Shown here piece after piece: positions 1,037 to 58,932 of a stretch of 64,000 bases of DNA (its first letter is position 1; each line of letters starts with the position of its first letter). A program made the position numbers and the translations under genes. The notes under the pieces are model-generated. The model was not told the origin of the DNA. It saw nothing but the letters and a program-made list of their open reading frames with translations, and did no database searches. The stretch comes from Candidatus Eremiobacterota bacterium (lineage in GTDB: Bacteria; Vulcanimicrobiota; CADAWZ01; Ess09-12), in NCBI GenBank assembly GCA_031082125.1, contig JAVHLM010000020.1, positions 62,001-126,000 of the forward strand. Direction: 5' to 3'.

Positions 1037-3403
1037 ATGGATACATTTGAGCTCTCCACCACTCACTCAATTTTTCTTCCTGATGAAGAGGAGCTTCTTC
1101 ACCTCGGTAATTCTATTTCTTCGAAGGACTGCGAGGATCTTCTTCTGCTTCCCGAGCCTTATGAGCTCCCCGCCGAGGCCCGCGACAGGGCGGAGCGCCT
1201 TGTGAAGATAAGCAGGGATGGCCTTCTCCCCGAGGCCGAGAAGCTCACGGATAATCTCACCCTGGGACCTGCCCTCATCGACAGGGATGAGCGGGCCTCC
1301 CTGATAGACTTCACCCTCTGCAAGGCCATCCGCGGCCGCCTCGCCCTTGACCTGGTCCTTGGCGGCCTTCTTGTGAATCTCAAGATGAAAGGAGTTGATC
1401 ATTTAGGCTACCGCTCCATAGCAACCTTTGCTGCGGAGCACCTCTCGATGTCAGGGCGCACTGCGTCGGAGCTGATGCACAATTATATGCTTCTCGAGAG
1501 TCTTCCCCTCACCAGGGAGGCTTACCTTCAGGGCAAGGTGGCCAAGAGCGCCCTGAGGCACCTTTCGAGGGTCATCACCCCCGAGAGCGAGGCGTCGTGG
1601 ATAAAGGAGACGGCGCATCTTTCAATGAGCGCCCTGGAGCGTAAGGTGGGGGAGGTGTGCGCGGGAAAGGATCCCGCGGCTCAGGCTTTTCCGGCAGAGG
1701 ACGCCCAGGCACCAGACGGCGGCGAAAATGAAGGAGTGATGATGTATTTCCGCGTGTCGCCCACCCTTGCCCTCACCTGGGACTTCGCCCTCTCCCTCTT
1801 CCGTGATAAGGAGCACTATGACGGTCCTGTCGCAGGCTTCGTCGAGGCCATCCTCGCCAACTGGGCGGCCTCTGGAAAATTCGCCTGTGGTCCTGCAGCC
1901 CTTGATGAGAAGGGAAGCCTCCCGGTATTTTACAAGAGTCGTGAGGCAGGGAAGGATTCTCGTCCCGGCACAGAGTCCGTCACGGGCCCGGCACAGGCAG
2001 AGGCTTTTCCTGGAGATACAGGGAGCACCGCCCCGGAGGCAGAGATCTCGCCGTGGGAGATGCCGTGGGATATATTCTTTCCTTCGTGGCTTGAGGAGAC
2101 CCGGCGGGGCGGGAAGCCCGGCAGCGGTTCTGTCAGGGCCGTCGCGGAGAGGCTCATCAGGGCCGCTTCGATGCGCCAGAGACTTGAAGTCGCTATCGGG
2201 ATGCTGCTGCGGGCGATGCACTCCAGGCAGCTTTTCACCAACTTTGGCTTTGAATCAATCGAGGAGTATGCGCAAACACGGTGCGGCCTCTCAAGGACCC
2301 AGGCCCGCCAGTTCATCACGGTCGCCAATGGCTTCCGCCGCCATTCGCTCACCGAGAAGGCCTTTAAAAACGGCACCATCACCAGGGAGCAGGCAAGGCT
2401 CATCCTTCCCCTGGTAAACGGGAAAAATGAAGAAGCCTGGATAGAATATGCCGCGTCTGTCCCCACAGCGGACCTCCGGGAAGAAGCAGAGCGCATCGCC
2501 AGGATCATCGAGTACGACAGCTTCGCGGCGGTGAACTATACCCTCCTCCCGGGCTTCCGCTATATCAGTGATGAGCGCTCTCATGAGCTTCCCTTCGAGG
2601 TAAGGGACGCCATCAGGACCGGGTCGTGGTACGGCGGCCCCTCGCAGCCCCCGGTGTGGCCCCTCTCCGAGGATGACGAAGAGCTCATGGAAGCCCGCGA
2701 CAGGCGCTTTGACGAGCCCTGGAAGCATTTCAGCGATGTTGATGAGATGCTTGCCGCCGAAGCGACAATAAAAGTTGAAAAAAATTCCGCGCTGTGTGCA
2801 AGTCTGAAAGAGGCCCGGGATATCTGCACCATCCCTTCAGGCGCCAATCCCGAGGAGACATTTCTCGTGGATATCATCCAGGGAGGCAGTCCGTCGCCTT
2901 CAGGGAGGGGCACCATGACCATCAGGTTTTCTCTCCCGGAAGAGCTCTTCGAGATCTGGAGCACCGCCGCCCGGGCTTTTCTGCATCTCACCGCACAGGC
3001 AGAGGCTGCCGGGGTGGAAGATACCGCGATCCCCCCCGTTGAAACATTCCTTGCCGCCCTGCTGGCAGACTATCTCGCCACTGAAGGGCATTTCCAAAAG
3101 GCTGCCCATCACCACAGGATCCTCAAGCGAGACCGGTTCCGCTGCCAGTCCCCCGGCTGCCGCTGCCGCAGAAACTTGCACGTTCACCACCTCATCAGGC
3201 GCTCCCAGGGCGGCACCGACGACCCCTGGAACCTTATCACCCTCTGCGAGGCCTGCCACCTCCACCTGATCCATGGCCTCAGGACTCTCACCATCAGGGG
3301 AAGAGCCCCCTTCGAGCTCACCGTCACCTTCGGAGCATCCTCTGAGAGCGAGCCCTTCCTGGTCTATGACAAGGGCGTGAAGACTTCCAGAAAGCACCTG
3401 TAA
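1037..3403 (+). CDS. Large HNH endonuclease-like protein, paralogue 1 (788 aa)
   Basis: The C-terminal region (about residues 691-748) is an HNH nuclease domain with zinc cysteines: HHHRILKRDRFRC, then CRC, HVHH, NL and CEACHLH. Two related helical modules precede it, at about residues 123-205 (YRSIATFAAEHLSMSGRTA, LTREAYLQGKVAKSALRHL) and 401-488 (FESIEEYAQTRCGLSRTQA, LTEKAFKNGTITREQARLI). They resemble the DUF222/13E12-type repeats often found before HNH domains. The start is placed at the internal ATG (MDTFEL), because the paralogue at 56207 starts with MDTFET and both ATGs lie 6 nt after a -10 box; both proteins are then exactly 788 aa. The biological role of such HNH proteins is largely unknown; DNA cleavage is inferred from the family. 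Confidence 0.85.
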   Translation: MDTFELSTTHSIFLPDEEELLHLGNSISSKDCEDLLLLPEPYELPAEARDRAERLVKISRDGLLPEAEKLTDNLTLGPALIDRDERASLIDFTLCKAIRGRLALDLVLGGLLVNLKMKGVDHLGYRSIATFAAEHLSMSGRTASELMHNYMLLESLPLTREAYLQGKVAKSALRHLSRVITPESEASWIKETAHLSMSALERKVGEVCAGKDPAAQAFPAEDAQAPDGGENEGVMMYFRVSPTLALTWDFALSLFRDKEHYDGPVAGFVEAILANWAASGKFACGPAALDEKGSLPVFYKSREAGKDSRPGTESVTGPAQAEAFPGDTGSTAPEAEISPWEMPWDIFFPSWLEETRRGGKPGSGSVRAVAERLIRAASMRQRLEVAIGMLLRAMHSRQLFTNFGFESIEEYAQTRCGLSRTQARQFITVANGFRRHSLTEKAFKNGTITREQARLILPLVNGKNEEAWIEYAASVPTADLREEAERIARIIEYDSFAAVNYTLLPGFRYISDERSHELPFEVRDAIRTGSWYGGPSQPPVWPLSEDDEELMEARDRRFDEPWKHFSDVDEMLAAEATIKVEKNSALCASLKEARDICTIPSGANPEETFLVDIIQGGSPSPSGRGTMTIRFSLPEELFEIWSTAARAFLHLTAQAEAAGVEDTAIPPVETFLAALLADYLATEGHFQKAAHHHRILKRDRFRCQSPGCRCRRNLHVHHLIRRSQGGTDDPWNLITLCEACHLHLIHGLRTLTIRGRAPFELTVTFGASSESEPFLVYDKGVKTSRKHL

Positions 3404-23999: not shown

Positions 24000-24084
24000 T
24001 GGGAAGGAGCGGGTTCGAACCACCATGGAGCATAGCTCGCTGGATTTACAGTCCAGTGCGATTAACCACTTCTTCCTGCCGCAC
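24000..24084 (-). tRNA. tRNA-Tyr (GTA) remnant with degenerate 5' half
   Basis: On the minus strand an anticodon arm CTGGA-CTGTAAA-TCCAG (24056-24040, anticodon GTA), a long variable arm GAGC-TAT-GCTC (24038-24028), a T arm with loop TTCGAAC and a 3' acceptor strand CCTTCCC (24007-24001) follow bacterial class II tRNA-Tyr. A D-loop-like AGTGGTTAA is present. However, the 5' acceptor strand that should read GGGAAGG is absent (best local fit 5 of 7 pairs) and the D-stem pairs poorly. A tRNA whose 3' part is intact and 5' part is not fits an integration-site scar better than a working gene. Confidence 0.45.
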
Positions 24085-24181: not shown

Positions 24182-26317
24182 CTATCGCCGGGGCCTTGCG
24201 TAGACCCTCACAGGATTGCCGTAAAGCCCTCCTCCCAGGTCCCCGGGGTCCGCAATTCTGATTCTCTCATGGATTCCCATTTTGCTTGAGAACAGGCCGT
24301 CTTCATCCTGAATGACCGCATGATAGCACAGGGGACCCTGGTAATTCGCATAATCGGGCCCCCAGGCTCCCCTCCTTATCTCGTAGTCTTTGCCGTCTGA
24401 GGGGGTAAACCCGTATAAAACGACCTTCTCAATCCCTTCCCGGAGGGAATAGTCCAGGGTGTCAAGGGGCTTGAACCCATGCGCTCCATAAAACTCGTCA
24501 AATCTTTCCACGAACACCTTGGGCTCGATAATCTCTTTCTCGTTTCGGACACTGTTTGCGATGCAGTTGAAGCGGGGCTTCCCATCCTTGCCGTCGGTGG
24601 CCCCCGAGAGAGCCTCGTACTTTTCCGGCGTGAGCCTGGGGAGGTCCTGCTGGTGCTCCCGGAGATACCGGTCGAATGTTTCTCTCACCTCGGGGTGTGC
24701 CCTGGTATCCAGCTTTTTTCCTGCTTCCTCGGGAGCGCCTTTATGGTCAGCAGCAGCATCGCCGGCAGGGCAGGGCCGGCTTTCATCATATCCATGTGCC
24801 TTTGGCGGGAGCATGATGTCAGGCTTTTTCCCAAGCTCTTTTGCCGCCCTCAGAAGCTCAATTGCCCCGGAGGCCATGCTGTCAGCCACTTTGAGGGCCT
24901 CGGGAACGGGGGGATTGAACTCCTTGCCGTCCTCCATGGTAAGCGCATAGATTCCCTTGCGGCGATAAAGGTAATCGTCAGTCTGGCCGTTGACGTTATA
25001 CGACAGCTCCGGCCTGTAGCTTTCTCCCTGCGGCTTCCCCACGGCGCCTATCATGCGCTTCTGAAGATTCTCAAAGATTTCGCGGTCGTGAGCATCAGTG
25101 ACGCTGTCGGGAATCATGACCTTCTCGCCATGGGAGTGGAAATCACAGGCGACCCTTATCTCGGGATGCTCATCGACAATGCCGGCGATATGCCTTGTCT
25201 CGGGCTCTGAAAAGGGGGCCGGCCCCGGATAGCCATCGTGCTGTGTCCATCTTCCCAGAAGCTTGTTATTGTCTGTGGGATGGGGCAGCATCCCCTTCTC
25301 CCTGATTATCTTCTGCTGCTCCGGCGAGGCGCCCTGTGGGTATGGCGTCCACTCGATATCAAAATTCCTGTTGATGTCAACGCCCTTGTCGCCGCTTCCG
25401 CTCCCGGCGAGGGGAGCCCTTGTCCTTCTCCATTCAGGATCGTCATGGATGGCGTAATTGAGGCCGTCGGGGTTTGTGACAGGGACCACATAGATATTCA
25501 ATGAATCAACAAGGTCCGTCAGCTCCCTGACCTTGGGATCATCGCTCCCGGGCCTGTAGTTTGCGCAGAGCTGCTCCAAGAGCTCGACCATCGCAAGAGG
25601 ATTCATCTTCTCCCTTCCATGGGGAGATGCCATGAAAAGCGCGCCGGGCTTTGAGGCTTTGTCACCTTTCCCGCTCGATATTGTGACATAGCGGAGCGGC
25701 GCGGGCCCCCGGAGCGAGGCGTTCTTCCCGTCATAGCCGGCAGTGCCGTACTCCCGCGTGGTTACCTTGACAAGGTCAGGATATTTTTCTGCAAGCTTCA
25801 ACACCCTGTCGTCTATCTGCCGCGCATCCATGTAGTCATTGACAAAACCCCTGGCGAAAGCGGTCCTGGAAGATCCGGGGGCGGTGGACGTCACCCCGTA
25901 GCGCGCCGCAAAATTAATGCCCTTCTCTTCTCCCTGAGGCGCAGAGGGTGCTCTTTCCTGTAAAAGGCTCAATGTGCCATTTTTATTGGCCACCAGGCTG
26001 CTGTCCCGATGCTGATCACTCGAAGGCGCCGCCTGTGGCTCTGCCTGGAGAGAAGCCTGAGGGGGAGCTGCTTCCGCCTGGGGCCCGGGGGCCCGGGGGA
26101 TCCTGAAATTATCCCTCAGTGCATCAATGTGGGCTTCTGCCAGATCAGCAGGTGCCCTGCCTTGCCCGCGCACTATATCGCCGGAGCTTTCCATGGTGTC
26201 CTGCGGTTCGGCTGAAGGGCTCTGTTCTCTTTCAGAGCTCTTTTCACCATGGGGCGCCCTTATGTTGTTCAATTCCCTGCCATAGCCGATCTGTGCACGC
26301 ATGTTCATGATAAGCAT
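24182..26317 (-). CDS. M14 zinc carboxypeptidase with shared N-terminal leader
   Basis: The 711 residues have three parts. Residues 1-53 (MLIMNMRAQIGYGREL, AEPQDT, RGQG) are 32/53 identical to the S8 protease encoded at 43178. Residues about 155-490 are an M14 domain with zinc ligands His233/Glu236 (SPHGRE) and His394 (CDFHSH), substrate-binding DINRN (Asn316-Arg317) and catalytic Glu462 (TMEDGKEF). The C-terminal domain (about 540-711) has FNCIAN (Cys585), KVVLYG, YHAVIQ (His666) and FSSKMG, reminiscent of the NCIA-type (DUF7689-like) domain. No Sec signal is seen. GAGGGGG precedes the ATG. CTTGAG direct repeats lie upstream. Probably cleaves peptides, perhaps cell-wall stems, outside the cytoplasm (inferred). 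Confidence 0.85.
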   Translation of the reverse strand: MLIMNMRAQIGYGRELNNIRAPHGEKSSEREQSPSAEPQDTMESSGDIVRGQGRAPADLAEAHIDALRDNFRIPRAPGPQAEAAPPQASLQAEPQAAPSSDQHRDSSLVANKNGTLSLLQERAPSAPQGEEKGINFAARYGVTSTAPGSSRTAFARGFVNDYMDARQIDDRVLKLAEKYPDLVKVTTREYGTAGYDGKNASLRGPAPLRYVTISSGKGDKASKPGALFMASPHGREKMNPLAMVELLEQLCANYRPGSDDPKVRELTDLVDSLNIYVVPVTNPDGLNYAIHDDPEWRRTRAPLAGSGSGDKGVDINRNFDIEWTPYPQGASPEQQKIIREKGMLPHPTDNNKLLGRWTQHDGYPGPAPFSEPETRHIAGIVDEHPEIRVACDFHSHGEKVMIPDSVTDAHDREIFENLQKRMIGAVGKPQGESYRPELSYNVNGQTDDYLYRRKGIYALTMEDGKEFNPPVPEALKVADSMASGAIELLRAAKELGKKPDIMLPPKAHGYDESRPCPAGDAAADHKGAPEEAGKKLDTRAHPEVRETFDRYLREHQQDLPRLTPEKYEALSGATDGKDGKPRFNCIANSVRNEKEIIEPKVFVERFDEFYGAHGFKPLDTLDYSLREGIEKVVLYGFTPSDGKDYEIRRGAWGPDYANYQGPLCYHAVIQDEDGLFSSKMGIHERIRIADPGDLGGGLYGNPVRVYARPRR

Positions 26318-26357
26318 GGTGGATCCCCCTCTTCAGCTATTCATATGCCACTGTTCC

Positions 26358-26401
26358 ATACTACTATAAACCGCTCAAGGAGCACTCAAGGAATACTCAA
26401 A
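26358..26401 (-). promoter_or_regulatory. Three 11-bp-spaced direct repeats upstream of the M14 gene
   Basis: On the minus strand, TTTGAG (26401-26396), CTTGAG (26390-26385) and CTTGAG (26379-26374) recur at exactly 11 bp, followed 10 nt later by a -10-like TAGTAT (26363-26358); TATAGT overlaps it 5 nt upstream. The S8 gene has the same array and 10-nt gap. One-turn spacing of direct repeats is typical of OmpR/PhoB-type response-regulator sites. Confidence 0.7.
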
Positions 26402-26498
26402 TCCGGAGGAAGAAGGGCTCTTTGGGAAGAAGAAGCAAGGAGGATTTCCGGCAGGCCTCCTGCAGCCACAGAACCTTACAAGACCTTGGGAGCGTGTT

Positions 26499-39179: not shown

Positions 39180-40484
39180 ATGGCCGGGCAGAAAAATCCC
39201 ACTGATCCAGGAAGCACCGGTGACGACCGTCACTTCGAGCTTGTCATTCAGGCGAGCGAGATCCTCACCTCTTCACCCGATATCAAAGAGATACTTGACC
39301 GCCTCATGGACCAGGTGCTCACCGTCATCAACGCCCAGGCCGGCTACGTGCTCATGAGGAGAGACGACGGCGGCGACTGGCAGTTTTATGCTGCCCGCTC
39401 CCGTGAAAAAGGAGAGATCCCCCCGGAAAAAATAATGATCAGCAGGAGCGTCGTCAACCAGGCGGTCTTGTCGGGAGAGCCCGTCATCACCACCGATGCC
39501 CTCCATGACCAGAGGTTCGAGGGAAAGACAAGCATAGGCCTTTATGGGCTCAAGTCGGTGCTCTGCGTCCCCCTTGTAATCCAGGGAGAAGCCCGGGGCG
39601 TCATCTATGCCGACAACCCTGTTGAAACCGCCGTATTCGGGCCCAGGGACACCGCGCTCCTCCTGTCCATAGCGCGCCAGGCGGCAATCGCCATGGAAAA
39701 CGCCGGGCTTTACGAAAAAATGAAGACCATCCATGAGGAAAGCATGGAAAAGGCCAGGAGGGAACTGCAGGAGACCCAGGCCCGGCTCTTCCAGGCTTCG
39801 AAAATGGCCGCCGTGGGCGAGCTTGCCGCAGGCGTGGCCCATGAAATCAACAATCCCCTCGGGGCCATCGAAGTCACCATATCGGCGATGCAGAGCCATG
39901 GCGGTGATGAGAAGCTCATGGGCCGCCTTGACAATGTAATGCGGGCCATCCTTCGCTGCAAGTCCATAATCAGCAAGCTCCTCGCCTTCTCCCGCCCCTC
40001 CGGCGGCCCCGTCACGAGGACAGGCATTGCCGACCTTATCGGGAACACCCTCCCGCTCTTCGACCTGGCCCTTCAGAAGGAACGCATCAAGATCCGCCTG
40101 GATATTGAGCAAGGCCTCTTCGTGCGAGCCGACGGGGGAGAGCTTGCCCAGGCCATCACCAATATAATTCTCAATGCCCGTGACGCCATGGCCTCCCTTG
40201 AGACGGGAGCGCGCCGTGAAATAGCCATCTGCGCTTACTCACGGGGGGAAATGGTCTCTTTGGAGATTGGCGACACAGGGACGGGCATGAGCGAAGAGGT
40301 GATGGAGCGCGCCTTTGAGCCCTTTTTCACCACGAAGAAACCAGGGGAGGGAACGGGCCTCGGCCTTGCCCTGGCCTTCCAGATAGTAAAGAAGCATGGC
40401 GGATCCATAGAGCTTGCCTCAAGGGCCGGTGAGGGGACCAGGGTCAAGATGGACTTTCCTGCAGACGAAGAACACGTGAGGTGA
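39180..40484 (+). CDS. GAF-domain sensor histidine kinase
   Basis: The 434 residues comprise a GAF sensor (about 20-180: EILTSSPDIKEILDRLM, GLKSVLCVPLVIQGEARGVI), a coiled-coil linker and a kinase core with H-box GELAAGVAHEINNPLGAIEV, N-box TNIILNARDAM, G1 DTGTGM, F-box FEPFFTTK and G2 GEGTGLGLALAFQIVKKHGG. No membrane segment, so it is cytosolic. Only 3 nt separate it from the response regulator at 40488, its expected partner. The SD is weak (GAGAGAAAG). Confidence 0.9.
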   Translation: MAGQKNPTDPGSTGDDRHFELVIQASEILTSSPDIKEILDRLMDQVLTVINAQAGYVLMRRDDGGDWQFYAARSREKGEIPPEKIMISRSVVNQAVLSGEPVITTDALHDQRFEGKTSIGLYGLKSVLCVPLVIQGEARGVIYADNPVETAVFGPRDTALLLSIARQAAIAMENAGLYEKMKTIHEESMEKARRELQETQARLFQASKMAAVGELAAGVAHEINNPLGAIEVTISAMQSHGGDEKLMGRLDNVMRAILRCKSIISKLLAFSRPSGGPVTRTGIADLIGNTLPLFDLALQKERIKIRLDIEQGLFVRADGGELAQAITNIILNARDAMASLETGARREIAICAYSRGEMVSLEIGDTGTGMSEEVMERAFEPFFTTKKPGEGTGLGLALAFQIVKKHGGSIELASRAGEGTRVKMDFPADEEHVR

Positions 40485-40487
40485 CCT

Positions 40488-43034
40488 GTGGCCGAGAGGA
40501 TCCTGATTGTTGACGACGATGAGTTCATGCGCACAAGCCTCAAAACGGAGCTTGAAGAGGAGGGCTTTGACGTGGCCCTCGCGGTGAACGGGACACAGGC
40601 CGTCACCCTTGCAAGGGAAGGCCATTTTGACCTCATACTCTGCGACGTGCGGATGCCCGATATAGACGGGATAGAGACCATTACGGCCATCAGGGAGGCC
40701 AATCCCTCGGCGCGGGTAATCTTTATCACGGCTTATGCAAGCGCCGACACCCCTGTTTCCGCCTTGAGGCTCAGGGTCGATGATTACCTGATGAAGCCCT
40801 TCTCTTTCAGCGAGCTTCTCAGCAGCATCAAGGCGGCCCTTGTGCGCCTGCGGCAGAAGGAGAGCTTTATCGACGGCGTGGCGCGGTACTGCGGAAGCTT
40901 CATGAAGATAATAAGGGGCGTCCTCTTCGAGAGCAAGATATCCCACCTCCAGGGCCATGCCGAGCATGTAGCCCGCTTTTCTCTCAGGATAGGCCGCCAC
41001 CTCGGCCTCTCACCCCTCAGGATGCAGAATCTTTACCTTGCGGCCCTCCTTCACGACATAGGCTACGTGGAGCTCCACCCCTCGCTCATGGAGAAAAGGG
41101 AGTTCGAGGAGCGCGACAGGGAGCTTGTCAAGAATCACCCTGTCTTTGCCCGCGAGCTTCTCGCCCCCTTCAGGGAGCTCAGGGAAGTGGCCACCATAAT
41201 TTACTGCCACCATGAGCGCTGGGACGGAAAGGGCTATCCCCAGGGACTCAGCGGAGAGCAGATCCCCGTCGAGTCGAGGATCATCGCCATCGCCGAAGCC
41301 TATGACAGCCTCACCAGCGCCAGGCCCCACAGGGAAAAGCTTGATATGGCAGGGGCAGTCAGCCACATTGAAAGGGAGAGCGGGAAGGCCTTTGACGGCA
41401 CGATTGTCGAAACGGCAAAAAAAATACTGGCCTCCACTGAGAAAGATGACATCGAGGTGCTTCCTGTGGCGAACGAAAAGCACGACGGCCGCATCTCAGC
41501 CCTGCTCACCCTGGCTGAGCTTTACCTGGAGGCAGGCGATTACGGGACTGCCCGGGAGGCTTTCAGCAATGCGAAGGAGCTCATCAATGAAGGCGCTTCT
41601 GAAGAGCTCTACGCAAGGGCTGAGATGGGTATGAGCGATCTGCTTTCACGGCAGGGCAGGCACGAAGAAGCGCTCGCCATGGCACTGGATCTTCTTGATT
41701 ACACGGCGCAAAGATCCCTCCAGCTCCTCCAAGCCCTTGCAATTATCAGGGCCTCGGCCCTCAGGATGGAGCTGGGCCGCTATGACGAGGTGGAAAAAGA
41801 CCTGCTCCTCGCCCTGAAAGTCCTCACCCTCTGGGAATCGGCCCCTGGAAAGTGCCAGGCGGAGCTTCTCCTCACGGCCCTCTACGCGCTGGGCGGCGAA
41901 AGGGATTCCAGGAAATTCGAGGAGCATCTTTGCCTTTTTGTTGCCTCGCCTTCAGCCGGTCAGTGCTTCAAGGCTTTCACCCGTTATGAAGCCCTCATCC
42001 ATGCGATATTGAAGCGCTCCATGGAAAAGGACGCATATCTTGTGGAGATCACAGCCCTTCTTGCCAAGGCGCCGGGAGCGGCGATGAAAGTGCTTGAGAG
42101 CCTTTCAGAGGACCGCGACTTTCTGGTGAGAGAGAGGGCCGGAATGATCCTTGGGAAGCTTTCGGCACATCAGCCTGCCGGGCTCCCTGCAGGGAAAGAA
42201 TCACCTCAGAAGCCTGCGGATACCGGAGAGAAGGCCTCTGCGGCCTCTCCCCGGGCACCGGCGGGCCACCTCCTGAAAGTATTTCTTTTCGGAGCCTTCA
42301 GGGTCTCGGCAGGCGCCGCCTTCATTGAGAGCGGGGTCTGGATCACCCAGAAGACCAGGAGCCTTTTCGCCTTTCTTGCCTCGAGGCTCGGCGAGGAAGT
42401 CCACGAGGAGAAGCTCATCGATCTTTTCTGGCTCGAGGGAGGCAAGGACCCCCGCCATTCTCTTCACAACAGCGTCTCTACCATAAGGAAGCTTGTCACC
42501 GCCCATCTCGGCGGGCAGGGACGGTCTGTCATCATCCACAGGCAGTCCACCTATTGCCTTAACGCCAGGCTTGTCGATTTCGTGGACTATATAAGCTTCA
42601 ACGACAGCTATCACCGGGGGATGGCCCTTCTCAAGGAAGGCTGCCATGAGGAAGCCATCGCCGCGCTTCAGAAAGCCGAGGGCCTTTATACCGGCGACTT
42701 CCTGGAGAGTTCCTATGACGAATGGAGCGACGAGGTGAGGCTGATGGCGCGGAACAGGCACATAGAGCTTCTCTTCACCCTGGGGAAATACTTTGCCGAT
42801 AAGCAGAAATACGAGGTAGGCATCGGGTATTTCAGAAAGATCCTCACTGTTGACAATATCTGCGAGGACGCTTACTGGGGCATCATGGTCTCCTCCATCG
42901 GCCTCAAGAACGAGAACGAGGCGATCCGCTCCTACCAGCAATGCGCGAAAGTGCTGAAGAGAGAGATGGACCTGCCCCCCCCCTCGAAGCTCACCGAGCT
43001 TTACCTCTCCCTTATCGACAGGAAGCCCTCCTGA
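40488..43034 (+). CDS. Response regulator fusion: REC, HD-GYP, TPR and SARP-like domains
   Basis: The 848 residues start at GTG 40488 (AGGTGA just upstream). Order: REC (about 1-125; LILCDVRMPDIDG with phospho-Asp, FITAYAS, MKPFS); HD-GYP c-di-GMP phosphodiesterase (about 150-325; HAEHVARFS, LLHDIGYVELHP, HHERWDGKGYP); helical TPR-like region (about 335-570); linker; then a winged helix plus BTAD-like region (about 595-848; KVFLFGAFRVSAG, KTRSLFAFLAS, RHSLHNSVSTIRKLVTAHL, GDFLESSYDEW) as in SARP/AfsR regulators. It would link c-di-GMP breakdown with transcription control under the GAF kinase. Confidence 0.85.
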   Translation: MAERILIVDDDEFMRTSLKTELEEEGFDVALAVNGTQAVTLAREGHFDLILCDVRMPDIDGIETITAIREANPSARVIFITAYASADTPVSALRLRVDDYLMKPFSFSELLSSIKAALVRLRQKESFIDGVARYCGSFMKIIRGVLFESKISHLQGHAEHVARFSLRIGRHLGLSPLRMQNLYLAALLHDIGYVELHPSLMEKREFEERDRELVKNHPVFARELLAPFRELREVATIIYCHHERWDGKGYPQGLSGEQIPVESRIIAIAEAYDSLTSARPHREKLDMAGAVSHIERESGKAFDGTIVETAKKILASTEKDDIEVLPVANEKHDGRISALLTLAELYLEAGDYGTAREAFSNAKELINEGASEELYARAEMGMSDLLSRQGRHEEALAMALDLLDYTAQRSLQLLQALAIIRASALRMELGRYDEVEKDLLLALKVLTLWESAPGKCQAELLLTALYALGGERDSRKFEEHLCLFVASPSAGQCFKAFTRYEALIHAILKRSMEKDAYLVEITALLAKAPGAAMKVLESLSEDRDFLVRERAGMILGKLSAHQPAGLPAGKESPQKPADTGEKASAASPRAPAGHLLKVFLFGAFRVSAGAAFIESGVWITQKTRSLFAFLASRLGEEVHEEKLIDLFWLEGGKDPRHSLHNSVSTIRKLVTAHLGGQGRSVIIHRQSTYCLNARLVDFVDYISFNDSYHRGMALLKEGCHEEAIAALQKAEGLYTGDFLESSYDEWSDEVRLMARNRHIELLFTLGKYFADKQKYEVGIGYFRKILTVDNICEDAYWGIMVSSIGLKNENEAIRSYQQCAKVLKREMDLPPPSKLTELYLSLIDRKPS

Positions 43035-43083
43035 GGCTCACGCCATCAGAAGCTCCGTCCCGCTCCATGAGAAATCTCCAGGA

Positions 43084-43127
43084 CTTGAGCATTCCTTGAG
43101 CGCTCCTTGAGCGGTTCCTGTTATACT
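43084..43127 (+). promoter_or_regulatory. Three 11-bp-spaced CTTGAG repeats upstream of the S8 protease gene
   Basis: CTTGAG at 43084-43089, 43095-43100 and 43106-43111, exactly 11 bp apart, then 10 nt and TATACT (43122-43127) with an upstream TG that makes an extended -10. No good -35 exists, so activation by a repeat-binding regulator is likely. The array matches that of the M14 gene in spacing, sequence and distance to the -10. Confidence 0.75.
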
Positions 43128-43177
43128 ATGAAGCAGGGAAAATTCCCGTGCCCGATAGATTGAAAGGGGGCTACGGC

Positions 43178-45331
43178 ATGCTTATCAGGAACATGCTCGC
43201 ACATATCGGCTATGGCAGGGAGCTGGAGAAGAAAAGCCCGCCTGCGGTGGAAAAGGACGCTGAAAGAGAAAAGAGCCTTAGAGCGGAGCCTCAGGACACA
43301 CTGGAGACGTCAGCGGAGCTTGAACGCGGCCAGGGCGGAGGCGTGCCTTCGGCTGATTCAGTGAAAGCCTATATGACTGCGTTGAAAGCCGCTTACTGCA
43401 TGAAGGAAGCCGCGGCGCAGCGGACGGAAATGGCTGCCCCTCAGGGCAGGCCCCTTTCCAATGAAGAGAAGAAAGTCATAGCGATGACGGAGTCGAAGGA
43501 AAGTGATTCCGAAGAGCTCAAGGCGCTCAAGAGGGACTACAGGGCTGCTTATCTTGATGCAGGCAAAGAGCTCGGCTCCGCACAGGAAGATGCAAAACAG
43601 GGAAACTGCGTGAGGGAAGACGGGTCGCGGCAGGAGGTCACCCGGCTTGAGAACGGCACTACCCAGGTGAAGATTACCGCAAAGGACGGGAGCGAGAAGA
43701 TGGTGCAGTTCAACCCTGAATTTCCCGGGAGCGTGCTCATCACCAGAAAAGAGCCTCCCCATAGTGATGAATCGGGAAACAAGGTGCCTGGAAAGGAATC
43801 CCAGGTCCTGCGGAGGGGATCGATACTCACCACGGGCCCCGGTCAACATGGCTCCGTAACGGGGAAAGGTGACACTGTGGTTTACAGGCCTGATGCCATT
43901 GGGAATCCCGAGAGGATCGAGTACCTCAATAATGAGGGAACCAGAAATCCCTTCGCCATGCGATATTCCCATGTGGAGGGCAGAGACGGCAGGTTTGTGA
44001 AGGAAGAGCTCTGCCAGGAGAAAATGCCTGAAGAGGAGAAGAAAAAGAGCCTGCTGGAGGCAGAGAAGGGCGACGAGATCCCCCATATCCGCAGGAATAT
44101 ACACCAGAACGGCGACTACCGCGACCCGTCGGGAAGAAGGCTCGACGGCACGGGCCAGACTGTCGCAGTGCTTGAGGCAGACTGTGATGATTTCTCAGGG
44201 CGTCTCGGCTCCCATGCGCAGATGGTCATGGACACCATGAACTCGGAAGGGACAGGCGTCGCTCCCGGTGCAAAGGGGGCAGCCTTTGAGCACAGGTCTG
44301 ACGATAATTCGTCACTGCTGCCGGGATTCAGCTCGTCGCGCAGGCCTCCCGAAACCATGGCGATCCCCGACAATAAAGAAGCCTTGACCAAAGAGCTGGA
44401 TAAGGCCATGCGCTTTGATAAACGCATCGTCCCCGACCTGGAGAGAATCCTTGATGCGCAGAAAAAAGGCGCCGGGATAAGTGTCCTTGACATGTCATTT
44501 GGAGAAGGACCCAACAGGTTAATGGACCAGGTGCTGAGCCTTCTCAACGTGAGCGATCCTTCCAATAATGAGCGCTATGCCCGCCCGGAGCTCAGAAAAG
44601 CCATCCTCGGCGAAAGCGCCAATAATCTTCCCACCAGGGAAGCTCTTGAAAAAGACCCCGCAGGCGTCTACCGGAAAGAAAGGCTTGCCGAAGAGATGAC
44701 AAAGGTGGCCGCCTTTGTCAGGGGGCGCATGGAAGGGCCCGGGAGCGGCTTCCAGCAGGCTCTCGGTGAATACCGCAAGGCCGTATCACGACTTGCTGAA
44801 GCCGGTGTCACCATAGTGGCGTCGGCAGGCAATGATCAGCAGAAAGCTCCCAAAGGCTCTTCCTGTATCGAGGAGGGCCTGCCCCCGTGGGATTCAGTAT
44901 GTCCCGGCGCTTCCCTGAGCTATTTCGGCTGGAGCCCCGACGTGATAACCGTTGCCGCCACAGACAGCCGGGCCACGGCGGGCAAATATGGCGATGACAC
45001 GGTTTCGGATTTTTCCTCACATGGTGAGGGCCAGGGCGGCTGGAATCCTACCGTCGCGGCACCGGGAGTAAACGTGAAAACGAATATCAAGGGAGAAACC
45101 ACCGAGGGGACTTCTTTCTCCGCTCCCTATGTGGCGGGTATCGTGGCCCTCATGAAACAGGCCGATCCCGCTCTTTCAAACGCCGAGGTGATAGATATTC
45201 TGAAAAAGACGGCAATAGATATCGCTCCAGGAATATCCGCCGACGGCGCAGGCGAGGTGGATCCTGAAGCGGCGGTAAGAGAAGCCCTCAGAAGAGCGGG
45301 GAGGCTGCCGCAGGCGGCAGGAGGCCGGTAA
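43178..45331 (+). CDS. S8 subtilase with shared N-terminal leader
   Basis: The 717 residues start at ATG 43178, after GGGGG; the upstream in-frame GTG adds 10 residues missing from the M14 relative. Residues 1-53 match the M14 protease (32/53, no gaps). Residues about 130-325 are a spacer with YD-like segments (VVYRPDAIGNPERIEYL). The subtilase domain follows: VAVLEADCDDF (Asp335 or a neighbour), GSHAQMVM (His346), the oxyanion Asn in VASAGNDQQ and GTSFSAPYVAGIVAL (Ser646). The Asp and His motifs depart from DTG and HGTHVAG. No Sec signal is visible. Preceded by CTTGAG repeats. Confidence 0.85.
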   Translation: MLIRNMLAHIGYGRELEKKSPPAVEKDAEREKSLRAEPQDTLETSAELERGQGGGVPSADSVKAYMTALKAAYCMKEAAAQRTEMAAPQGRPLSNEEKKVIAMTESKESDSEELKALKRDYRAAYLDAGKELGSAQEDAKQGNCVREDGSRQEVTRLENGTTQVKITAKDGSEKMVQFNPEFPGSVLITRKEPPHSDESGNKVPGKESQVLRRGSILTTGPGQHGSVTGKGDTVVYRPDAIGNPERIEYLNNEGTRNPFAMRYSHVEGRDGRFVKEELCQEKMPEEEKKKSLLEAEKGDEIPHIRRNIHQNGDYRDPSGRRLDGTGQTVAVLEADCDDFSGRLGSHAQMVMDTMNSEGTGVAPGAKGAAFEHRSDDNSSLLPGFSSSRRPPETMAIPDNKEALTKELDKAMRFDKRIVPDLERILDAQKKGAGISVLDMSFGEGPNRLMDQVLSLLNVSDPSNNERYARPELRKAILGESANNLPTREALEKDPAGVYRKERLAEEMTKVAAFVRGRMEGPGSGFQQALGEYRKAVSRLAEAGVTIVASAGNDQQKAPKGSSCIEEGLPPWDSVCPGASLSYFGWSPDVITVAATDSRATAGKYGDDTVSDFSSHGEGQGGWNPTVAAPGVNVKTNIKGETTEGTSFSAPYVAGIVALMKQADPALSNAEVIDILKKTAIDIAPGISADGAGEVDPEAAVREALRRAGRLPQAAGGR

Positions 45332-56206: not shown

Positions 56207-58573
56207 ATGGATACGTTTGAGACCCACACCATTCACTCATTGTTCCTGCCCGATGAAGAGGAGCTTCTTTACCTCGCGGATCCCTGCTGTCTTCAGGACC
56301 ACGAGGACCTTCTGCTCCTCCCCGAGCCCTATGAGCTTCCCGGGGAAGCCCTCTGGAAAGCTGAACGCCTGGTAAAGATCACCAGGGAAGGGCTCATTCC
56401 CGAAGCGGAAAAGCTCACGGAGGATATCTCCTGGGGACCCCCCATCTCCACTATCAGCAGTGATGAGCGGGCAGCCCGCATAGATTTCACCCTCTGTGAG
56501 GCAGTCAGAGGCCGCCTCGCGCTTGATCTGGTTCTTGGCGGCCTTCTTGTGAATCTCAAAAAGAAAGGAGTGGATCTTTTAGGGTATCGCTCCATCGGTT
56601 CTTTTGCCGTGGAGCACCTCTCGTTCTCGGGGCGCACCGCATCGGAGCTGATGCGCAACTTTGAGCTTCTCAGCAGCCTTCCTCTCACCAGGGAGGCATA
56701 TCTCCAGGGGAAAATTGCCAGGAGCGCTCTCAGGCATCTTTTAAGACTCGTCACGCCTGAGAACGAGGCGGAGTGGCTTGGCATAGCGCAGAAGCTCTCG
56801 ATAAGCGCCCTGGAGCGCGAAGTAAAAAAGGCGCTTGCCGGGGGGAAGGAGCCTGCCGCCCAGATGGCGGGAAACTGCGGGATGGAGCCTGATGCCCAGG
56901 GAGCGCCTGATGAGGGCCTCATGATGTATCTCAGCGTCTCCCCCACCCTTGCCCTCACCTGGGATTTCGCCCTTTCCTTTTTCCGCGACAAGGAGCACTA
57001 CGACGGGCCCCTCGCGGGATTCATCGAGGCGCTTCTCGCCAACTTCCTGGCATCACGGAAACCGGCTCCATCGCCTCTTGATGACAAGGGAAGCCTCCCC
57101 TTGTTTTACCGGGCGCCTTTCATGACCCGAGAGCAGAGAGCCCGTCTCATAGGCGATGAAGAGGCAGTGCAGGAGAACGGCAGCGATGGAAAGGGGGGCA
57201 CTGATGATCCCTGGGAATCGCCGTGGGATATCTTTTTCCCTTCCTGGCTTTACGGGGAGAAAGACGGGGAGCCAGTGAGAGCCCTTGCCGCGAGGCTCAT
57301 CAGAGCCGCGATGATCCGCCAGAGGCTTGACGTGGCCACAGGGATGCTCCTCAGGGCGATGCAGGTGAGATCGCTCTTCACCGGCTTCGGCTATGAATCC
57401 GTCGAGGAATACGCCCAGGAGCGGTGCGGTTTTTCAATGGCACAGACCCGCCAGTTCATAAGGCTTGCCAATGGGTTCCACCGCCACTCTCTCACCGAAA
57501 AGGCCTTCATGAGCGGCACCATCACCAGGGAGCAGGCCCGCCTCATTCTTCCCCTGGTGAATTCTAAAAACGAGGAAGCCTGGATAGCTTATGCCGCAGG
57601 CGTGCCCACGGCGGACCTCAGGGAAGAGGCGGAGCGCATCGCCCGGATCATCGAATACGACAGCTTCGTGCCGATACAATATACCCTTCTTCCCGGCTTC
57701 CGCTATATCACCGACGAGAGATACCACGAGCTTTCCTTTGAGGTGCGGGACATCATCAGGACCGGGTCCTGGTATGGCGGGCCATCGCCTGTATCATCGT
57801 GGCCTCTCCCCGAGGATGACGAGGCATCCCTGGTAACGCGGGACAGGCGCTTTGATGAGCCCTGGAAGCATTTCAGCGATGTCGCTGAAATGCTCTCCTG
57901 CGAGGCCCAGATTAAAATTGAAAAAATTTCCGTGCTGTGTGCGGGGCATCTCGATAAAGCCAGGCAGATCTGCGCCATCCCCCAGGGCGCCAGTCCCGAA
58001 GAGACCTTCCTGGTGGACATCCTCTCGGCAAAGGACCCCTCACAGGCGGCAGGGAGCTCCATGATGATAAAATTCTTTCTCCCCAAAGAGCTTTATAACC
58101 TGTGGAACACCGCCGCCATGAATTTTCTGCACCTCACTGCGCAGTCAGAGGCCACCCGGACTGATCCAACCCGGCATGTTCTCAGCCAGCCTTTCGAGGC
58201 CCCTGTCCTCCCGGAAGAGAGATTCCTCGCCGCCCTTCTTGCCGATTATCTTTCCACCGAGGGGAAGATCCAGAAGGCTGCCCATCACCACAGGATCCTG
58301 AAGCGTGACCGGTTCCGCTGCCAGACTCCAGGCTGCCGCTGCAGGCGAAATTTGCATGTGCACCACATCATCAGGCGATCTCAGGGCGGCACCGATGACC
58401 CCTGGAACCTCATCGTGCTCTGCGAGGCCTGCCACCTCCACCTGCTTCACGGCCTCCGGACCATCACCATCAGGGGTGAAGCTCCTCACAACCTCACCTT
58501 CACCTTCGGCGCCCTCTCTGACGGCGAGCCTTTCCTGGTCTATGAAAAGGGCTTGAAGGCCCTGCCTGCCTGA
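56207..58573 (+). CDS. Large HNH endonuclease-like protein, paralogue 2 (788 aa)
   Basis: It is a close paralogue of the protein at 1037 and has the same length. The N-terminal and middle helical modules (FAVEHLSFSGRTASEL, LTREAYLQGKIARSALRHL; ESVEEYAQERCGFSMAQTR, GTITREQARLILPLVN) and the C-terminal HNH (HHHRILKRDRFRCQTPGC, HVHHIIRRSQGG, CEACHLHLLHG) are conserved. Divergence is concentrated in the charged linkers at about residues 230-255 and 360-390 and before the HNH. The start is the ATG of MDTFET, 6 nt after the -10. Two near-full-length copies within 55 kb suggest family expansion. Confidence 0.85.
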   Translation: MDTFETHTIHSLFLPDEEELLYLADPCCLQDHEDLLLLPEPYELPGEALWKAERLVKITREGLIPEAEKLTEDISWGPPISTISSDERAARIDFTLCEAVRGRLALDLVLGGLLVNLKKKGVDLLGYRSIGSFAVEHLSFSGRTASELMRNFELLSSLPLTREAYLQGKIARSALRHLLRLVTPENEAEWLGIAQKLSISALEREVKKALAGGKEPAAQMAGNCGMEPDAQGAPDEGLMMYLSVSPTLALTWDFALSFFRDKEHYDGPLAGFIEALLANFLASRKPAPSPLDDKGSLPLFYRAPFMTREQRARLIGDEEAVQENGSDGKGGTDDPWESPWDIFFPSWLYGEKDGEPVRALAARLIRAAMIRQRLDVATGMLLRAMQVRSLFTGFGYESVEEYAQERCGFSMAQTRQFIRLANGFHRHSLTEKAFMSGTITREQARLILPLVNSKNEEAWIAYAAGVPTADLREEAERIARIIEYDSFVPIQYTLLPGFRYITDERYHELSFEVRDIIRTGSWYGGPSPVSSWPLPEDDEASLVTRDRRFDEPWKHFSDVAEMLSCEAQIKIEKISVLCAGHLDKARQICAIPQGASPEETFLVDILSAKDPSQAAGSSMMIKFFLPKELYNLWNTAAMNFLHLTAQSEATRTDPTRHVLSQPFEAPVLPEERFLAALLADYLSTEGKIQKAAHHHRILKRDRFRCQTPGCRCRRNLHVHHIIRRSQGGTDDPWNLIVLCEACHLHLLHGLRTITIRGEAPHNLTFTFGALSDGEPFLVYEKGLKALPA

Positions 58574-58707: not shown

Positions 58708-58932
58708 ATGAAGGTAGTAAAAATAATCGCGATACTGATGATAGCTGCAGTGCTGCTCGCGATGGTCACCAGCTCAGCTCTTTCAGTCGAGGAAAAATGT
58801 ATCAGGTGCGACGGGAAAAAGGACTGTCAGGTGTGCAGCGGAAGCGGGAAGAATCTCAGCGGGAATGATTGCTCAATGTGCAGCGGAACGGGCAAATGTT
58901 ACTACTGTAATGGCACGGGGAAGAAAAGCTGA
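58708..58932 (+). CDS. Small membrane protein with DnaJ-like zinc-finger repeats
   Basis: The 74 residues have a hydrophobic N-terminus (IIAILMIAAVLLAMV) and then CIRCDGKKDCQVCSGSGK and CSMCSGTGKCYYCNGTGKK, i.e. four CxxCxGxG-type units as in the DnaJ cysteine-rich domain. ATG 58708 is chosen because it starts the membrane/signal segment. It ends 2 nt before the sigma factor start. The operon position suggests a role in redox or zinc-linked signalling, but this is inference. Confidence 0.7.
   Translation: MKVVKIIAILMIAAVLLAMVTSSALSVEEKCIRCDGKKDCQVCSGSGKNLSGNDCSMCSGTGKCYYCNGTGKKS

What the first reader, a model, noticed from the sequence alone, without database searches (positions are those of the whole stretch)
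26358..26401. Triple 11-bp direct repeats upstream of both leader-tagged proteases
CTTGAG-type hexamers recur at exactly 11 bp three times, then 10 nt before a -10-like box, at the M14 gene (minus strand) and at the S8 gene (43084-43127). The genes are 17 kb apart on opposite strands. The shared array indicates one regulator for leader-tagged proteases, and one-turn direct repeats are typical of PhoB/OmpR-type regulators.
Basis: partly seen in the sequence, partly recalled or inferred. Interest (0 to 1): 0.75.

Follow-up and report, generated by a model that had tools for sequence, protein, structure and literature searches.

The report
SARP-type repeat promoters of a regulon
The two three-fold DNA repeats in front of the protease genes are real and belong to about 20 matching gene switches across this bacterium's genome, most likely operated by a two-component version of the SARP activators known from antibiotic-making Streptomyces, here placed in front of genes for mostly small proteins that look exported.

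Summary
In detail: TTGAG repeats three times at exactly 11 bp, the last copy ending 10 nt before a -10 box, at both genes. But the array is not specific to the proteases. A profile trained without the window sites finds 19 sites genome-wide at E<0.01, both window sites included. Copies keep one register (-49, -38, -27, -16), and every site faces a gene. The likely regulator lies in the window: the gene ending 49 nt before the S8 array (40488-43034) encodes receiver, HD-GYP, TPR, winged helix and BTAD, beside a histidine kinase gene. Its C-terminus matches EmbR and AfsR in sequence and predicted fold, and 11-bp repeats with the last heptamer 8 bp before the -10 is the published SARP rule. Three of six such loci carry an array within 300 bp (permutation P about 1e-5), as does the region before the ortholog in another family; none of nine ordinary OmpR-type regulators is near one. 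The leader occurs only in M14 and S8, which share one duplicated promoter-plus-N-terminus cassette. Other array genes encode mostly small G/S/M-rich proteins without signal peptides. Regulator identity, binding and export are inferred, not shown.

The parts
26374..26401 (-). Array before M14: TTTGAG 26401-26396, CTTGAG 26390-26385, CTTGAG 26379-26374 (registers -38, -27, -16 from the -10)
   Evidence: recovered by an independently trained profile at E=3.3e-4
26358..26363 (-). -10-like box TAGTAT of the M14 promoter
   Evidence: register shared with the other sites
24182..26317 (-). M14 zinc carboxypeptidase gene, 711 aa, with C-terminal DUF7689
43084..43111 (+). Array before S8: CTTGAG 43084-43089, 43095-43100, 43106-43111 (registers -38, -27, -16)
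   Evidence: recovered by the independently trained profile at E=1.8e-3
43122..43127 (+). -10-like box TATACT of the S8 promoter
   Evidence: register shared with the other sites
43178..45331 (+). S8 subtilase-family protease gene, 717 aa
40488..43034 (+). Candidate regulator: response regulator with receiver, HD-GYP-type HD_5, TPR, OmpR-like winged helix and BTAD (SARP domain), 848 aa; ends 49 nt before the S8 array
39180..40484 (+). Cognate-candidate histidine kinase, GAF-HisKA-HATPase_c, 434 aa, directly upstream of the regulator gene
26190..26408 (-). Duplicated cassette, M14 copy: promoter array, ribosome site and about the first 43-50 codons
   Evidence: local alignment with 43076-43305, identity then falls to background
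43076..43305 (+). Duplicated cassette, S8 copy

Best explanation
The arrays are activator sites of SARP type. A two-component system (GAF histidine kinase plus a receiver/HD-GYP/TPR/winged-helix/BTAD response regulator) is switched on by a signal. The regulator's SARP domain then binds the 11-bp TTGAG repeats side by side on one face of the DNA, over the place where a -35 box would lie, and recruits RNA polymerase to the -10 box. Each promoter has up to four subsites; the last, counted as the heptamer TTGAGNN, ends 8 nt before the -10. The window's regulator (40488-43034) and its paralogs on contigs C26 and C28 are the candidate readers. They control about 20 genes, some beside them and most elsewhere in the genome: mostly small Gly/Ser/Met-rich proteins without signal peptides, plus the two proteases. 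Shown by computation: the array, its register and promoter position, the site list, the SARP homology, and the linkage of arrays to SARP genes. Inferred: binding, activation, phosphorylation control, which paralog reads which site, and export of the products.
For: Profile trained on 13 non-window sites finds 19 sites at E<0.01 in 7.4 Mb, both window sites included. Copies peak only at -49, -38, -27, -16. All 20 aligned sites face a gene, -10 usually 30-63 nt before the start codon, although only 13.5% of the DNA is noncoding. SARP promoter rule: direct repeats 11 or 22 bp apart, 3' repeat 8 bp from the -10, overlapping the -35 (PMC10936776; PMC4393881). Regulator's C-terminus matches EmbR (1e-13) and AfsR (5e-13) by profile, and its model (pLDDT 92.8) has EmbR and AfsR as the six best PDB matches. 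An array follows the SARP gene directly in the window and on C26 (nine arrays in 19 kb there), and one precedes the kinase-SARP operon on C28; 3 of 6 by chance has P about 1e-5. In relative G028 an array lies about 570 nt upstream of the SARP ortholog. These four SARPs fall in a clade of five with 100/100 support. None of nine ordinary OmpR-type regulators is near an array.
Against: No binding or expression data. The C19 paralog of the same clade has no array nearby, and most array genes lie far from any SARP gene. Relatives G032 and G038 have arrays, but the SARP found there for G038 lies outside the array-linked clade. The C26 regulator has no kinase gene beside it. Conserved TTAAC/(T)CAAC elements upstream and conserved bases after the -10 are not part of the SARP rule and may mean another factor.
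Confidence: 0.72

Rival explanations
1. A conventional PhoB/OmpR-family response regulator encoded elsewhere reads the arrays as pho-box-like direct repeats.
For: PhoB-type boxes are also 11-bp direct repeats about 10 nt before the -10 (own knowledge), and AfsR and PhoP can share a site (PMC10972967), so geometry alone does not separate the two. The genome has nine ordinary Trans_reg_C regulators.
Against: None of the nine lies near an array; the nearest is about 23 kb from the S8 array on C20. SARP loci are linked to arrays far beyond chance. No regulated gene looks like a phosphate-regulon gene.
Confidence: 0.17
2. The repeats mark promoters of a dedicated alternative sigma factor or another unrelated factor, and the SARP genes are near them only because they belong to the same islands.
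For: Array genes far from any SARP outnumber those beside one. Sequence after the -10 and a TTAAC/(T)CAAC pair upstream are also conserved.
Against: Geometry fits the SARP rule to the base. The -10 is close to the ordinary TATAAT, and up to four tandem subsites do not fit a sigma factor. Linkage recurs at three separate loci and in another family.
Confidence: 0.07
3. The arrays are only a by-product of duplicated promoter cassettes and carry no regulatory function.
For: M14 and S8 do share a duplicated cassette of about 230 bp, and the C30 site has similar spacers.
Against: Other sites have diverged spacers and unrelated genes but keep the hexamers and the exact register; the pattern recurs in other families of the phylum.
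Confidence: 0.03

Closest known systems
Streptomyces SARP activators and their promoters (AfsR/afs box, OtcR, DnrI, ActII-ORF4)
   Same: OmpR-type winged helix + BTAD; direct repeats at 11 bp on one face of the DNA, last repeat 8 bp before the -10, covering the -35; AfsR is a top fold match.
   Different: Here the SARP domain is C-terminal behind receiver, HD-GYP and TPR domains, with a histidine kinase; usually three or four subsites instead of two or three; targets are exported-looking proteins and proteases, not antibiotic clusters; not an actinomycete promoter set.
Mycobacterium tuberculosis EmbR
   Same: Winged helix + BTAD architecture and best fold match.
   Different: EmbR carries an FHA domain and no receiver or HD-GYP domain (own knowledge).
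PhoB/OmpR regulators and the pho box
   Same: 11-bp direct repeats replacing the -35, about 10 nt before the -10 (own knowledge).
   Different: No BTAD in those proteins; the nine ordinary OmpR-type genes here are not linked to arrays.
Terminal reassortment of type III effectors (promoter plus N-terminal signal copied onto new bodies; own knowledge)
   Same: M14 and S8 share promoter and about 50 N-terminal residues, then have unrelated bodies.
   Different: Export by a type III system is not shown; only divergent FlhA/SctV paralogs were found.

Membership tests
SARP family (regulator protein) | OmpR-type winged-helix DNA-binding domain followed by BTAD | tested here: met
   BTAD over cut-off in all six; Trans_reg_C weak in the window copy (19.9 bits, below cut-off) but over it in others; EmbR/AfsR by profile and by fold
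SARP family (regulator protein) | SARP domain at the N-terminus | tested here: not met
   SARP domain is C-terminal, after receiver, HD_5 and TPR; so this is a variant architecture, not a standard small or large SARP
SARP-type promoter | Direct repeats separated by 11 or 22 bp | tested here: met
   exact 11-bp register in the aligned sites
SARP-type promoter | 3' repeat 8 bp from the -10, repeats covering the -35 | tested here: met
   TTTGAG at -16 ends 10 nt before the -10, heptamer TTGAGNN ends 8 nt before; copies at -27 and -16 cover the -35 position. Some sites have only a degenerate copy at -16
SARP-type promoter | Bound and activated by the SARP protein | not testable with these tools
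   needs EMSA, footprint or reporter
PhoB/OmpR regulon | Array linked to an ordinary OmpR-type regulator gene | tested here: not met
   nine such genes, none near an array
PhoB/OmpR regulon | Phosphate or other typical PhoB target genes behind the array | tested here: not met
   mostly uncharacterised small proteins, two proteases, NlpC/P60
Type III-exported proteins (array gene products) | No N-terminal signal peptide; Ser/Thr/Asn-rich N-terminus | tested here: met
   0 of 19 with a hydrophobic N-terminus against 149 of 497; STN enrichment p=8e-6; necessary but not sufficient
Type III-exported proteins (array gene products) | A matching injectisome linked to the array genes | tested here: inconclusive
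   several divergent FlhA/SctV paralogs in loci without recognised partners; hrcV model matches 56 of 58 relatives, none over cut-off

The most novel reading that the evidence does not exclude
In an uncultured lineage, two-component SARP regulators run a regulon of proteins exported through divergent FlhA/SctV-type machines, and new members (such as the M14 and S8 proteases) are recruited by copying a promoter-plus-leader cassette onto unrelated enzyme bodies.
Probability: 0.28. Interest if true: 0.78.

Novelty: new variant of a known kind. Interest (0 to 1): 0.58.

Why it matters
SARP activators are studied almost only as switches of antibiotic clusters in Streptomyces. Here the same promoter geometry, extended to as many as four subsites, is tied by linkage to a two-component SARP with an HD-GYP domain and to a regulon of exported-looking proteins in an uncultured bacterium, with sites in relatives of other families. 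It gives a readable consensus (TTTGAG at -49/-38/-27/-16) with which the regulon can be listed from sequence, and it joins two proteases to a set of unknown small proteins that are probably used together.

Tried and rejected
Relatives of M14 in named genomes: none. Named relatives of the regulator: matches mostly confined to the receiver/HD part, so the phylum could not be named. Leader as the shared tag of the regulon: rejected, exact only in M14 and S8. Ordinary OmpR regulators as readers: no linkage. Type III machinery as a presence/absence test: uninformative, nearly all relatives match through FlhA. Two-copy pattern alone: many hits lie in coding DNA. MAFFT misaligned the window sites in the first DNA alignment, so the profile was built without them, which made them an independent test. 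PDB search with one sequence gave only TPR proteins; the alignment profile gave EmbR and AfsR. Rfam: nothing in the window. The own-genome profile scan scored only 150 of 2765 first-look candidates, so weaker sites may be missing.

Full report
OBSERVATION. On the minus strand before the M14 gene: TTTGAG, CTTGAG, CTTGAG at exactly 11 bp, then 10 nt, then TAGTAT (26401-26358). On the plus strand before S8: three CTTGAG at 11 bp, 10 nt, TATACT (43084-43127). The full pattern occurs only there in the window, with none in 100 shuffles.

NOT INDEPENDENT. M14 and S8 align over about 230 bp running from the array through the ribosome site to about codon 50, after which identity falls to background. 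This is one duplicated cassette of promoter plus N-terminus, joined to two unrelated protease bodies. So the two window sites are not two independent cases, and the shared leader is explained by the same duplication. The leader's DNA motif is exact nowhere else in the genome, and inexact hits equal the control.

GENOME SCAN. The triple pattern gives 12 places against 0 for the reversed control. Nine clear promoter sites have copies in one register relative to the -10: -49, -38, -27, -16. A weight-matrix scan of 656 kb gave 12 places scoring 22 or more, with none in Markov controls, and pointed to further sites on C26 and C18. A sequence-only profile built from 13 non-window sites then searched the whole genome: 19 sites at E<0.01, among them the two window sites (3.3e-4, 1.8e-3) and new sites on C40, C12, C27 and C28. 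I aligned these 19 plus one weaker site (C18:79.5 kb, E=0.24). All 20 face a gene; the -10 lies 30-63 nt before the start codon except on C28 (212 nt, a kinase-SARP operon) and C12 (where the called start overlaps the -10 and is probably too early). Noncoding DNA is 13.5%. The phase profile peaks only at the four registers. Also conserved: TTAAC at about -68 and (T)CAAC at about -57 upstream, and bases after the -10 near GGAACCAGAG.

THE REGULATOR. The gene ending 49 nt before the S8 array encodes receiver, HD-GYP-type HD, TPR, OmpR-like winged helix and BTAD, directly after a GAF-HisKA-HATPase kinase gene. The genome has six such full-length proteins. The winged helix + BTAD part matches EmbR and AfsR by profile (1e-13, 5e-13), and its model (pLDDT 92.8) has EmbR and AfsR as the first six PDB matches. 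SARP promoters are described as direct repeats 11 or 22 bp apart, the 3' repeat 8 bp from the -10, overlapping the -35 (PMC10936776; PMC4393881; PMC10972967). Counted as heptamers TTGAGNN, the last repeat here ends exactly 8 nt before the -10. The resemblance to TCGAG-type heptamers of DnrI and ActII-ORF4 is from my own knowledge and was not tested.

LINKAGE. An array follows the SARP gene directly in the window (S8 gene) and on C26 (an NlpC/P60 gene); C26 holds nine arrays within 19 kb around its SARP gene; and an array precedes the kinase-SARP operon on C28. Three of six SARP loci with an array within 300 bp has P about 1e-5 when array clusters are placed at random. In relative G028, of another family in the same phylum, an array lies about 570 nt upstream of the SARP ortholog. 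These four proteins fall in a clade of five with 100/100 support; the fifth, on C19, has no array nearby. None of nine ordinary OmpR-type regulators lies near an array. Among 58 relatives searched, arrays in the same register precede small genes in G028, G032, G038 and G006; in G032 and G038 the -10 differs, and the SARP compared for G038 lies outside the clade, so the pairing there is open.

THE REGULON. Products are mostly small and lack a hydrophobic N-terminus (0 of 19 against 149 of 497 others); they are rich in G/S/M (p=2e-8) with S/T/N-rich N-termini (p=8e-6). Most have no Pfam family; exceptions are NlpC/P60, the two proteases, a PQQ-like propeller and, behind the weak C18:79.5 kb site, DUF1521, a domain of NopE-type, type III-secreted proteins. 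The genome has several divergent FlhA/SctV paralogs, but the search for type III machinery was uninformative. Export is therefore a suggestion only.

READING. The most likely mechanism is a phosphorylation-controlled SARP activator filling up to four adjacent subsites over the -35 position and recruiting polymerase to the -10, as the AfsR dimer does on its two repeats. Binding, activation and the pairing of each paralog with its sites are inferred.

Noticed in passing
own genome, e.g. L068:10457-11356, L073:15359-17197, L074:7888-9465, L100:8998-9891, L100:12736-13557; window M14 and S8 leaders: A D-[STGAV]-F motif recurs near residues 28-37 of Pro-rich N-termini without signal peptides: 14 of 317 proteins in residues 10-70 against 2 of 271 in residues 70-130. 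M14 and S8 carry a similar PQDTM/PQDTL. Two such proteins flank a divergent FlhA/SctV paralog on C38. Possible export or sorting signal.
   Followed up: partly
L099:8096-10309, L100:10052-12331, L098:9885-12026: Three full-length divergent FlhA/SctV paralogs besides the flagellar FlhA, below both curated cut-offs and in loci without recognised partner genes.
   Followed up: partly
own promoters, about -68 and -57 from the -10; also L142, L174, L313 in relatives: TTAAC and (T)CAAC, 11 bp apart, upstream of the TTTGAG array; (T)CAAC resembles the repeat read on the other strand, so there may be inverted upstream subsites.
   Followed up: partly
C27:40493 (L131), C28:64969 (L127), C18:79537 (L135): Variant arrays with TGTGAG or TGTAAG in place of TTTGAG, perhaps read by a different SARP paralog.
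   Followed up: no
window 58708-58932; L096:9240-9539; L142:1019-1243; L310: Small proteins with repeated CxxCxGxG motifs recur near SARP genes or arrays in this genome and in G028.
   Followed up: no
window 1037-3403 and 56207-58573; L072:12443-14983: Three long paralogs starting MDT.ET..I..LFLPDEEELL, two of them in this window, of unknown function.
   Followed up: no
L069:9636-10025 and L071:11323-11754: Two array genes on different contigs share an acidic C-terminal segment (EDQMA.DA.GP.PE.N.TDDGP.G.EGDAPGE).
   Followed up: no
window 24000-24081: tRNA-Tyr gene just downstream of the M14 gene on the same strand.
   Followed up: no
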